DNA of 64,000 bases from Ochrobactrum sp. CM-21-5 (lineage in GTDB: Bacteria > Pseudomonadota > Alphaproteobacteria > Rhizobiales > Rhizobiaceae): positions 186,001 through 250,000 of the forward strand of contig NZ_JACLZJ010000001.1 of assembly GCF_014253075.1 (NCBI RefSeq), read 5' to 3'. The notes beneath the pieces are model-generated. The model saw nothing but the letters and a program-made list of their open reading frames with translations. It was not told the DNA's origin and ran no database searches. Below are positions 51,359-53,231 of the stretch, piece by piece. Positions within the stretch are counted from its first letter, which is position 1. The number at the start of each line of letters is the position of its first letter. A program made the position numbers and the translations under genes.

Positions 51359-51582
51359 GTGTGACTTGCACGATTCAGCGGTTGCGTTTTGTGGGCTTTA
51401 AGCCTATAAGGCCGCGTTCGAACCGCCCGGCAGGGCATGCCGTGGCGGTTTCGTATGCTTTCTGGACTTGGTCGGTCCGGGAGTGAAAACAGGGTTTCGG
51501 TCGGTTGCCGGCGCCGGCGTCTTTAAAACAAGAGGCGTGGAGTGCCGAAGGCACGACGGGGACTAAACAAAGGAGTAGCAAA
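51359..51582 (+). promoter_or_regulatory. Structured leader of rpmI-rplT
   Basis: 224 nt with several strong hairpins: GGGCTT-T-AAGCCT near 51393-51405; AACCGCC-CGGCA (51421-51432) pairing with TGCCG-T-GGCGGTT (51438-51450), 12 bp with one bulge; CTGGAC/GTCCGG near 51462-51480; GCCGGC/GCCGGC near 51507-51518; and GTGCC-GAA-GGCAC at 51542-51554. No T-run follows, so it is not a terminator. In many bacteria L20 represses this operon through leader RNA; this could be the alphaproteobacterial counterpart. The 3' part is also found upstream of pheS. Confidence 0.55.
51525..51564 (+). repeat. Conserved pre-start RNA block upstream of rpmI (shared with pheS)
   Basis: Begins AAAACAAGAGGCGTGGAG, identical over 18 nt to 53192-53209. 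A hairpin GTGCC-GAA-GGCAC follows, then CGACGGGGACT. The pheS copy has GCGCC-TTG-GGCGC, so the second pair of the stem changed T-A to C-G on both sides. Block ends 18 nt before the rpmI ATG, just 5' of the AGGAG ribosome site. Confidence 0.65.
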
Positions 51583-51783
51583 ATGCCCAAGATGAAGACC
51601 AAATCGGCCGCGAAGAAGCGGTTCAAGATCACCGGCACCGGCAAAATCAAGGCCGCAGCTGCTGGTAAGCGTCATGGCATGATCAAGCGTTCGAACAAGT
51701 TCATTCGCGATGCACGCGGCACCATGGTTCTGGCCGATGCCGATGCAAAAATCGTGAAGCAGTTCCTGCCGAACGGCCTCTAA
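51583..51783 (+). CDS. rpmI: 50S ribosomal protein L35
   Basis: 66 residues from ATG at 51583 behind AGGAG. KMKTKSAAKKRFKITGTGKIK is the L35 opening (given in part), with LPNGL at the end. It sits between the structured leader and rplT, 28 bp before it. Confidence 0.97.
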   Translation: MPKMKTKSAAKKRFKITGTGKIKAAAAGKRHGMIKRSNKFIRDARGTMVLADADAKIVKQFLPNGL

Positions 51784-51811
51784 GCGTTAAGTCTGAGAAG
51801 GAGATCATATC

Positions 51812-52216
51812 ATGGCACGTGTAAAACGCGGCGTTACTGGCCACGCAAAGCACAAGAAAGTTCTTGATCAGGCTGCCGGCTTCCGTGGCCGTCGCAAGAA
51901 CACCATCCGTACCGCCAAGGCTGCGGTCGATCGTTCCAAGCAGTATGCTTACCGCGATCGCAAAAACCGCAAGCGTTCGTTCCGCGCTCTGTGGATCCAG
52001 CGCATCAATGCTGCTGTCCGCGAGCAGGGCTTGACCTATGGCCGTTTCATCGACGGTCTTGCCAAGGCTGGCATCGAAGTTGACCGCAAGGTCCTGTCCG
52101 ATATCGCAATCCACGAACCGGAAGCATTCGGTGCGCTGGTTGCATCGGCAAAGAAGGCGCTCGAGTACCTCAAGAACACTTCGACGCCGAACGCTTTTGA
52201 AGGCGCTGTCCGCTAA
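51812..52216 (+). CDS. rplT: 50S ribosomal protein L20
   Basis: 134 residues; ARVKRGVTGHAKHKK and YAYRDRKNRKRSFR are family signatures. L20 binds 23S rRNA and in other bacteria represses the rpmI-rplT message. AAGGAG precedes the ATG. A terminator follows. Confidence 0.97.
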   Translation: MARVKRGVTGHAKHKKVLDQAAGFRGRRKNTIRTAKAAVDRSKQYAYRDRKNRKRSFRALWIQRINAAVREQGLTYGRFIDGLAKAGIEVDRKVLSDIAIHEPEAFGALVASAKKALEYLKNTSTPNAFEGAVR

Positions 52217-52254
52217 GCCAGCCGCCTTCCCGAAGCGATATTGATAATTTTGGG

Positions 52255-52293
52255 GACCCGCGCTGGCTCGGCTGGCGCGGGTTTCTTTTTTTG
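52255..52293 (+). terminator. Rho-independent terminator after rplT
   Basis: ACCCGCGC (52256-52263) pairs with GCGCGGGT (52275-52282); a T-rich run TTTCTTTTTTT follows. It lies immediately before the next start at 52302. Confidence 0.8.
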
Positions 52294-52301
52294 GGCCGGA
52301 T

Positions 52302-53153
52302 ATGAAGGACGAAACGGGCAATTTGACAATGGAGTTGGATGCGGACGATCTCCGCAGCCTGTTGGCATTGCTTGCCCAAAGTCGAGGCCGACGTATTTCC
52401 AGCGCCGTCATCGGGGGCCGCCAGGTCTGGATAAAGCGGTTTGATGCTGAAAAGCGTCCCTGGCCCAAAAGATTGCATGGTCGGATATCGCCTTTCCTGG
52501 TTCATTCCTTTCTGCGCAGCCCGCAGAATCTGGACGAGACGGCAATGGCAGGTCGTGAGCAGCGCAAGATGAAGGCCTTTCTGGAGGCCGGGTTTCAGGT
52601 TCCGCGAGTTGTCTACCATCAGGGCCCGGTCATGGTGTTGAGCGACGTGGCGCCAATGATTCAGAATCGGCTGGACAGCTTGCGCAAGACCGATCCGGAA
52701 GAACACGACCGGCTTCTCGTCCATTGCGCGCGGTCGCTGGGTGAGGTTCATGCTGCGGGTCTTTGTCATGGCCGTCCGCATCCGCGGGATTTCTTCGAGA
52801 GGGGAGGCACCGCGGGCTTCCTCGATTTCGAGGAAGAGCCGGAAGCGGTGATGCCGCTTGCCGTGGCGCAGGCGCGGGACGTGTGGCTGCTGTTTTTCCA
52901 GATCACCTCACAGGCGAAACTGCGGGAAACCGCACAGAACGCATTCGCGATCTACCGTGCCTTGGCCCCTGCGCATGTCATATCGGAGCTGCGCAAGATT
53001 GTCGGTTTCTTCCGATTTACCATCGCGCCGCTCAGGTTGTTTCGCCGGATTTACCTTGGCGGTGACGGAGAACGGCTTTTGCAGGCGATGGAATTTTTCG
53101 ACAGCTTCTTGATGTCCGGCTCCGATCCGGTCATTGAGAATGACAAAACATGA
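52302..53153 (+). CDS. Kinase-like protein between rplT and pheS
   Basis: 283 residues. The protein looks like the protein-kinase/APH/InaA fold: a beta-3-type Lys in RQVWIKRF (near residue 48), a helix with REQRKMKAFLEAG, a hinge near MVLSDVAP, and a catalytic-loop region GLCHGRPHPRDFFE (near residue 153) followed by GFLDFEEEP (the DFG-equivalent). In active relatives the loop reads HGD-x-H-x-x-N; here the Asp is Arg and the Asn position is Asp. It may be a pseudokinase or use an altered loop. The C-terminal third is helical and basic. It has its own start after the rplT terminator. Substrate unknown. Confidence 0.8.
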   Translation: MKDETGNLTMELDADDLRSLLALLAQSRGRRISSAVIGGRQVWIKRFDAEKRPWPKRLHGRISPFLVHSFLRSPQNLDETAMAGREQRKMKAFLEAGFQVPRVVYHQGPVMVLSDVAPMIQNRLDSLRKTDPEEHDRLLVHCARSLGEVHAAGLCHGRPHPRDFFERGGTAGFLDFEEEPEAVMPLAVAQARDVWLLFFQITSQAKLRETAQNAFAIYRALAPAHVISELRKIVGFFRFTIAPLRLFRRIYLGGDGERLLQAMEFFDSFLMSGSDPVIENDKT

Positions 53154-53191
53154 AGGTGCTGTCTGGAGTGTCGCAGGCATGACTGAGAATG

Positions 53192-53231
53192 AAAACAAGA
53201 GGCGTGGAGCGCCTTGGGCGCGACAGGGATT
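53192..53231 (+). repeat. Conserved pre-start RNA block upstream of pheS (shared with rpmI)
   Basis: AAAACAAGAGGCGTGGAG, then hairpin GCGCC (53209-53213) TTG GGCGC (53217-53221), then GACAGGGATT. The AGGGA at 53225-53229 is the probable pheS ribosome site, 8 nt before the ATG, so folding could affect initiation. 33 of 40 positions match the rpmI copy, and two of the differences are compensatory. Confidence 0.65.

What the first reader, a model, noticed from the sequence alone, without database searches (positions are those of the whole stretch)
51525..53231. A ~40-nt element with a covarying hairpin precedes both rpmI and pheS
51525-51564 and 53192-53231 share an identical 18-nt opening (AAAACAAGAGGCGTGGAG) and then a hairpin: GTGCC-GAA-GGCAC before rpmI, GCGCC-TTG-GGCGC before pheS. 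The loop differs fully, and the one stem difference is changed on both sides (T-A to C-G), so pairing is preserved. Both copies end just before the ribosome site, and in the pheS copy the AGGGA site follows immediately. Duplication with selection for structure, not sequence alone, is the simplest reading. It could let one factor (L20, L35 or another) coordinate the ribosomal and PheRS genes. I know of no described RNA family with this sequence.
Basis: partly seen in the sequence, partly recalled or inferred. Interest (0 to 1): 0.8.

Follow-up and report, generated by a model that had tools for sequence, protein, structure and literature searches.

The report
Portable hairpin repeat at start codons
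A 34-letter DNA repeat that folds into a hairpin has spread through many alphaproteobacteria, into gene leaders and even inside genes, and two copies just ahead of two protein-making genes in this bacterium appear to be kept by selection, probably as part of the signal that starts translation.

Summary
In detail: two elements with an identical 18-nt opening and a compensated stem lie before rpmI and pheS, the only two good copies in the genome. They are not a private rpmI/pheS signal. They belong to a dispersed, often tandem repeat family of Alphaproteobacteria: 306 copies in 201 arrays in element-driven loci, with a strongly covarying stem, no Rfam match, and copies in gene leaders and in frame inside genes (glyQ, uvrB, hisS, mutS and others). 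Nearest described kin: CGTC-tagged REP / Rickettsia palindromic elements; tag and in-gene habit agree, stem and loop do not. The family favours start codons in sense: 23 independent sites against 3 antisense, 13 of them with the element's own GGGA 7-12 nt before the start, pheS among them. In the window's genus the rpmI copy is constrained in place: its 5' arm differs by 2.3% between genomes, against 24% at rplT third positions and 48% in the flank, with pair flips. So selection for structure is supported; coordination of rpmI and pheS by L20 or L35 is not. My reading: a mobile palindrome kept as a translation-start hairpin. What reads it is unknown.

The parts
51529..51562 (+). rpmI-leader copy, core of the element: 5' arm CAAGAGGCGT, G-GA-GTGCC / GAA / GGCAC-GA-C, 3' arm GGGGA
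   Evidence: CM 59.7 bits at 51526-51566; constrained in the genus
51539..51557 (+). hairpin of the rpmI copy: outer pair 51539-51557, tandem G-A/G-A (51540-51541 with 51555-51556), 5-bp stem, GAA loop
   Evidence: pair counts (outer pair G-C 16, C-G 8, unpaired 2 of 26 distinct rows at the rpmI site)
51570..51575 (+). AAGGAG, own ribosome site of rpmI, outside the element
   Evidence: sequence; GGAG here in most loci aligned, with and without the element
51583..51783 (+). rpmI (ribosomal protein L35)
   Evidence: PF01632
51812..52216 (+). rplT (ribosomal protein L20)
   Evidence: PF00453
53165..53192 (+). decayed tandem copy one register (41 nt) upstream of the pheS copy
   Evidence: CM 10.8 bits, E 0.27: weak alone, supported by register and by intact tandem copies at this place in congeners
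53196..53229 (+). pheS-leader copy, core of the element
   Evidence: CM 50.6 bits at 53193-53233
53225..53229 (+). AGGGA, 3' arm of the element at the place of the pheS ribosome site, 8 nt before ATG
   Evidence: sequence; last copy 8-9 nt before pheS in the 28 genus loci scored
53238..54347 (+). pheS (phenylalanyl-tRNA synthetase alpha)
   Evidence: PF01409, PF02912

Best explanation
A dispersed palindromic repeat of Alphaproteobacteria (34-nt core; units usually 39-44 nt apart in tandem) that once moved and duplicated. Copies that landed in sense just upstream of a start codon have repeatedly been kept as part of the translation-initiation region: the hairpin stands 5' of the ribosome site, and at pheS and 12 other independent genes the element's own GGGA sits where the Shine-Dalgarno sequence is expected. 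Shown: the family, its covarying stem, its presence or absence at orthologous sites, the start-codon and strand bias, and constraint in place at rpmI. Inferred: that the RNA hairpin acts at translation initiation, and that something (30S subunit, an RNA-binding protein or a nuclease) recognises the invariant 5' arm and hairpin foot.
For: Stem: 99.0% of cells paired against 78.2% shuffled; covariation 0.497 against 0.128. Mobility: GlyQ has the in-frame insert in 4 of 29 rows, present in congener G165 and absent in the window's genome; near-duplicated flanks at glyQ of L277 and a 12-nt direct repeat at rplC of L022. Start codons: 23 independent sense sites against 3 antisense within 30 nt, p 9e-5, 13 of the 23 at 7-12 nt. 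In place: rpmI element in 29 of 30 genus loci; pheS 1-6 copies with the last 8-9 nt from ATG in 28 of 28 scored; covariation 0.393 against 0.199 shuffled at rpmI and 0.345 against 0.153 at the last pheS copy; 5' arm distance 0.023 against 0.243 (rplT third positions) and 0.476 (flank), 28 genomes; a copy scoring over 15 nearest the rpmI start in 28 of 30, one register upstream in 4 of 29.
Against: The simple insulator idea failed: ribosome site plus start codon are no more accessible than with shuffled elements in 12 start-proximal loci (mean 0.674 against 0.674). Direct repeats around single copies are hardly enriched overall. Many copies lie away from starts, and 10 sites lie within 30 nt behind a sense stop. 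No expression data were available. Re-seeding of rpmI or pheS from other copies could imitate evolution in place; in 4 genus loci rpmI has two copies, of different pair type in three. Genes were called by a rough script of mine, and the null for the start-codon bias is only the opposite strand.
Confidence: 0.66

Rival explanations
1. Purely selfish or neutral DNA repeat (REP- or RPE-like). Hairpins are kept by the mobility process and gene conversion, and the rpmI and pheS copies do nothing for the host.
For: In-frame copies in unrelated genes; tandem expansion 1-6 at pheS; 169 of 253 triloops are GNA, a loop I recall as unusually stable in single-stranded DNA; presence or absence within the genus at glyQ.
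Against: Constraint at rpmI far below neutral yardsticks; a locus-specific 3' arm kept in both pair types (GGGGA in 23 of 29 rpmI copies, AGGGA in 26 of 28 last pheS copies); sense and start-codon bias; poor survival of the upstream register at rpmI.
Confidence: 0.22
2. A trans-acting RNA-binding factor, not yet known, binds the hairpin and co-regulates the genes that carry it (a mobile operator).
For: The unpaired 5' arm and hairpin foot are more conserved than most stem letters; several start-proximal targets are translation genes: L3, RimP, TruB, YchF, L35 and PheS.
Against: Targets also include ilvE, mraZ and citramalate synthase and in-gene copies; gene sets differ between lineages; CsrA, suggested by ACAGGGA (motif recalled), is absent from all 18 element-bearing genomes among the 23 searched.
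Confidence: 0.2
3. A shared L20 or L35 operator coordinating rpmI-rplT with pheST.
For: Both copies lie in one gene neighbourhood, and both persist across the genus.
Against: Most copies serve other genes; 27 of 28 loci of other genera lack a scoring rpmI copy; no Rfam leader match; a separate, nearly invariant rpmI leader hairpin exists.
Confidence: 0.06
4. The element is selected as coding sequence (leader peptide or N-terminal extension).
For: It reads through without stops in the rpmI frame in the window and is in frame inside genes.
Against: The distance to the rpmI start varies, 20, 21 or 22 nt, among genus loci, so the frame is not kept; compensatory pairs change codons.
Confidence: 0.03

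Closest known systems
CGTC-tagged REPs, including RPE-4 and RPE-6 (Di Nocera et al. 2013, PMC3733652; abstract, outline and passages seen)
   Same: Small palindromes centred in Alphaproteobacteria, some inside genes, no dedicated transposase. Read antisense, our element begins TGTC, GGTC or CGTC next to the stem and ends TCCN; the paper lists TGTC and CCTC as variants of CGTC.
   Different: Paper: stems 8-9 bp starting with A-T pairs, loops 4-5, CCA tail, mostly downstream of genes, missing from Brucellaceae. Ours: stem 5 bp, loop 3 or 4, conserved 5' arm CAAGAGGCG, GGGA end, start-codon bias, present in that group.
Rickettsia palindromic elements (passages in PMC2229807)
   Same: In-frame insertion into protein genes; hairpin.
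   Different: RPEs are given as 105-146 bp in Rickettsia; ours is a 34-nt core. RPE sequences were not compared here.
GTAG REPs with RAYT transposases (passages in PMC3733652)
   Same: Short hairpin repeat; GGAG stands 5' of the stem.
   Different: No GTAG tag; Y1_Tnp in 3 of 20 element-bearing genomes and 2 of 10 without a model match, none in the window's or in copy-rich G154, G261 and G458.
Br-REP1 and Br-REP2 (PMC5082802); Bru-RS (PMC2267715)
   Same: Palindromic repeats of related alphaproteobacteria.
   Different: The printed Br-REP consensus sequences differ from ours; Bru-RS families are listed at 103-118 bp (type I there, taken as intergenic) and no sequence was seen. Passages only.
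Ribosomal-protein and aminoacyl-tRNA-synthetase leaders in Rfam
   Same: Hairpins in 5' leaders of such genes.
   Different: No Rfam family at gathering score in the window; below it, only weak hits in 51300-53300, none covering a copy on its own strand.

Membership tests
CGTC-tagged REP superfamily | terminal CGTC (variants TGTC, CCTC) next to the stem | tested here: inconclusive
   Antisense tag TGTC 177, GGTC 83, CGTC 21, CCTC 2 of 306.
CGTC-tagged REP superfamily | stem of 8-9 bp beginning with A-T pairs, loop of 4-5 | tested here: not met
   5-bp stem with 3- or 4-nt loop in 289 of 306; the first stem pair is G-C in 44 of 48.
CGTC-tagged REP superfamily | CCA tail | tested here: inconclusive
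   Antisense tail TCCT 109, TCCA 83, TCCC 46, TCCG 40 of 306.
CGTC-tagged REP superfamily | position mainly 3' of genes | tested here: not met
   Independent sites within 30 nt: before a sense start 23, behind a sense stop 10, before an antisense start 3, behind an antisense stop 4.
GTAG REP / RAYT system | RAYT (Y1_Tnp) gene in the genome | tested here: not met
   Found in 5 of 30 genomes: 3 of 20 element-bearing, 2 of 10 others; not in the window's.
Rickettsia palindromic elements | in-frame insertion in protein genes | tested here: met
   58 in-gene arrays in sense, 46 of them in one phase, 5 antisense; empty sites in GlyQ.
Rickettsia palindromic elements | length of about 105-146 bp | tested here: not met
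   34-nt core; 95 of 105 neighbour spacings are 39-44 nt.
Rfam leader families (L20, tRNA synthetase and others) | covariance-model score above the curated cut-off | tested here: not met
   0 matches in the window.
CsrA-controlled leader | CsrA present in the host | tested here: not met
   PF02599 in 1 of 23 genomes, G160, which had no element match; not in the window's.

The most novel reading that the evidence does not exclude
A self-spreading hairpin serves as a portable translation-start module: it inserts ahead of genes, brings its own ribosome site, and puts each host gene under one unknown RNA-binding reader. It would be a mobile operator that has repeatedly captured core translation genes across Alphaproteobacteria.
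Probability: 0.22. Interest if true: 0.85.

Novelty: new variant of a known kind. Interest (0 to 1): 0.62.

Why it matters
Small palindromic repeats are usually treated as selfish or as 3' mRNA ends. Here one family can be followed from insertion (empty and filled glyQ sites in one genus) to apparent domestication (constrained, covarying copies at rpmI and pheS), and it shows a strand-specific preference for start codons. That makes a general question testable: can a mobile hairpin supply a ribosome-binding region and be kept for it? I found no description of this family in the listings of the paper searches, which cover open-licence papers only and were read as listings; of 503 papers matching the short sequence strings only 30 were listed.

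Tried and rejected
RAYT mobilisation: Y1_Tnp in only 3 of 20 element-bearing genomes. CsrA site: CsrA in none of the 18 element-bearing genomes among 23 searched. Insulation of the ribosome site by the hairpin: no gain over shuffles in 12 loci. Target-site duplication as a general mark: among 179 copies taken as single, 6-nt flank matches 16 against 9.7 expected, mostly at orthologous rplC and ffh sites; the two 12-nt cases are both at rplC, and one (L090) is part of a tandem pair. Insertion inside RNA genes: 20 loci scanned, no copy inside one, though arrays lie beside tmRNA and rnpB. Phages: one weak hit (64% of the query, E 0.8); plasmids: two records of one strain, in a strawberry-notch gene. 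K-turn: the C stem it needs is not there (inspection). Palindromes of the canonical CGTC-REP form (form recalled) in the fetched DNA: 20 in 14 of 305 loci. The first context count was discarded because TTG in the antisense strand made false starts. The pheS row is unreliable (a looser start motif misplaced starts); searches are used instead. In one search MAFFT misplaced 4 rows with a longer stem, so its last two pairs are undercounted. In one search the label of the four two-copy loci is that of the distal copy; parsimony needs 6 changes of the G-C/C-G label, at least 4 forced by well-supported branches. In one search one in-gene group of 25 arrays joins several genes by single linkage. Of the 3 antisense start sites, two overlap the element by 3 nt and are doubtful calls.

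Full report
1. What is there. The 18-nt opening is identical and unique in the window to 3 mismatches (0.01 expected). In the whole genome (4.28 Mb) only these two match exactly; the other eight hits all have 3 mismatches, and the reversed control gives 5 hits. The likeness continues through the hairpin to GGGA, so the unit is a 34-nt core (51529-51562 and 53196-53229). One 41-nt register upstream of the pheS copy lies a decayed copy (53165-53192, 10.8 bits, E 0.27). Rfam has nothing for it (weak hits only).

2. It is a repeat family. A pattern with 2 mismatches hit 18 of 150 genomes of the order, often as tandem copies 40-44 nt apart; the reversed control hit 1, and two of the loci (L027, L028) lack the 3' half and look like chance. 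From 48 of 55 distinct units (alignment A1) the stem is plain: 99.0% of cells paired against 78.2% after shuffling, covariation score 0.497 against 0.128, 48 double-changed cells against 14.3, and sliding the partners destroys it. The pair outside the stem (columns 14 and 33) brackets a tandem G-A / G-A. A covariance model found the element in 46 of 121 genomes of the family (up to 34 copies in a 2.0-Mb genome), 9 of 337 of the class and 5 of 200 of the phylum (four are of the window's family, one, G684, is labelled outside the class); each count includes the window's own genome. My own scanner gave 344-366 hits on 187 loci against 0-1 in reversed sequence.

3. Where it sits. In the element-driven loci (L011-L207) there are 306 copies in 201 arrays; 85 of 105 neighbour spacings are 40-43 nt, with a mode of 42. 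Genes were called with a simple codon-usage script, so borders are approximate. Inside genes: 58 arrays in sense, 46 in one reading phase, giving a peptide like QEARSAEGATGK, and 5 antisense; by gene family 21 sense and 4 antisense sites. Genes confirmed by NCBIfam include glyQ, uvrB, hisS, mutS, miaB and gcvPB, and a strawberry-notch helicase by Pfam. GlyQ gives the cleanest insertion: of 29 rows read (30 loci), 4 have the insert and 25 do not; congener G165 has it and the window's own genome lacks it. In L277 the insert is flanked by CTGCATAAA and TTACATAAA. At rplC, L022 has an exact 12-nt direct repeat on both sides. In general such duplications are hardly enriched.

4. Start codons. Counting one site per gene family, 23 arrays lie within 30 nt upstream of a start in sense and 3 in antisense (p 9e-5). 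Of the 23, 13 have the element's GGGA end 7-12 nt before the start, pheS among them; one abuts the start, and 9 lie at 16-28 nt, among them rpmI and rplC, which have their own ribosome sites. Confirmed genes of this list: L3, YchF, MraZ, TruB, RimP, IlvE and citramalate synthase; Ffh (41 nt) and TsaD (48 nt) are further off. Within 30 nt behind a sense stop there are 10 sites, behind an antisense stop 4.

5. In the window's genus. Named hits with copies before rpmI or pheS are Brucella (L185), Ochrobactrum (L098) and Falsochrobactrum (L080), so the genus is inferred, not given. rplT was found in 35 of 35 genomes and 30 loci were fetched. The rpmI element is found in 29 of 30; the 30th (L213) has a copy with a small deletion. 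In 4 loci rpmI has two copies. pheS has 1-6 tandem copies in the 28 loci scored (1 in 7, 2 in 11, 3 in 5, 4 to 6 in 5), the last 8-9 nt before ATG in each; of the other two, L225 has two copies before a start that my motif missed, and L236 gave no pheS start.

6. Selection in place. At the rpmI site (29 rows, 26 distinct) covariation is 0.393 against 0.199 shuffled; the outer pair is G-C in 16, C-G in 8 and unpaired in 2, and the inner pair C-G in 17, U-A in 8 and U-G in 1. At the last pheS copy it is 0.345 against 0.153, with 4 rows misaligned. Between 28 genomes the 5' arm at rpmI differs by 0.023 per site, rplT third positions by 0.243 and the 40-nt upstream flank by 0.476; a copy scores over 15 nearest the start in 28 of 30 and one register upstream in 4 of 29. 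A tree of rpmI plus rplT needs 6 changes of the outer-pair label, at least 4 forced by well-supported branches (caveat in Tried and rejected). The 3' arm is GGGGA in 23 of 29 rpmI copies, in both pair types, and AGGGA in 26 of 28 last pheS copies, which speaks for change in place, though exchange between copies also occurs. Outside the genus, 27 of 28 fetched rpmI loci lack a scoring copy; two of these (L245, L267) look like decayed ones by eye, and some other genera, Mesorhizobium for one, do have a copy there (L076, L105, L179). Whether that is shared inheritance or separate gain is open.

7. How it may work. Shown: a repeat whose copies near starts are mostly in sense and, at rpmI, kept as a structure. 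Inferred: the RNA hairpin takes part in translation initiation. Two simple mechanisms failed: better access of the ribosome site and CsrA. The invariant single-stranded arm suggests recognition by some factor, but none is identified. L20 or L35 control is unlikely, and the rpmI leader has another hairpin (AACCGCC-CGGCA-GGGCA-TGCCG-T-GGCGGTT), nearly invariant in the 23 leaders aligned (16 with the element, 7 without), plus a covarying one that is broken in 1-3 leaders per pair.

8. Known kinds. The nearest are CGTC-tagged REPs, which Di Nocera et al. (PMC3733652; abstract, outline and passages seen) find in all orders of Alphaproteobacteria but not in Brucellaceae, with RPE-4 and RPE-6 among them and no dedicated transposase. 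Read antisense, our copies begin TGTC (177), GGTC (83) or CGTC (21 of 306) and end mostly TCCN, which suggests distant kinship. But stem length, loop and position differ, so I do not file it there. Y1_Tnp occurs in 3 of 20 element-bearing genomes and 2 of 10 others. I call it a new variant of a known kind: a palindromic repeat with a start-codon habit and apparent domestication.

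Noticed in passing
window 51421-51482: Upstream of the rpmI element lies a far more conserved leader: a nearly invariant hairpin (AACCGCCCGGCAGGGCATGCCGTGGCGGTT) and a second, covarying hairpin (TCTGGAC..GGTCCGG), shared by other genera that lack the element. It is a candidate for the real rpmI-rplT control leader and has no Rfam match.
   Followed up: partly
window 51382-51410: TTGCGT, 17 nt, TATAAG just before that leader looks like the rpmI promoter; seen by eye and similar in several relatives, not reported by the consensus scan.
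   Followed up: no
window 52302-53153: A 283-aa reading frame between rplT and pheS with no NCBIfam or Pfam match at the thresholds used; the rplT-pheS distance is short in many congeners, as if this gene were missing there.
   Followed up: no
window 52252-52286: Strong terminator-like hairpin after rplT (16 pairs, T-rich tail), so pheS is probably transcribed separately from rpmI-rplT.
   Followed up: no
L013 (about 1484-1641) and L024 (2095-2378): Element arrays lie directly beside the tmRNA gene (L013) and close to the rnpB gene (L024), on the opposite strand to the RNA gene, in genomes of two different families.
   Followed up: partly
L043, L051, L054, L062, L103, L165: The C-terminal region of UvrB (NCBIfam match for L165; same flanking sequence in the others) holds the element's peptide next to other repeat-like stretches: a likely hot spot of in-frame repeat insertion.
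   Followed up: no
G684 (L274 and a second contig): Two 50-bit matches in a genome labelled outside the class: transfer, contamination or a deeper member; not resolved.
   Followed up: no
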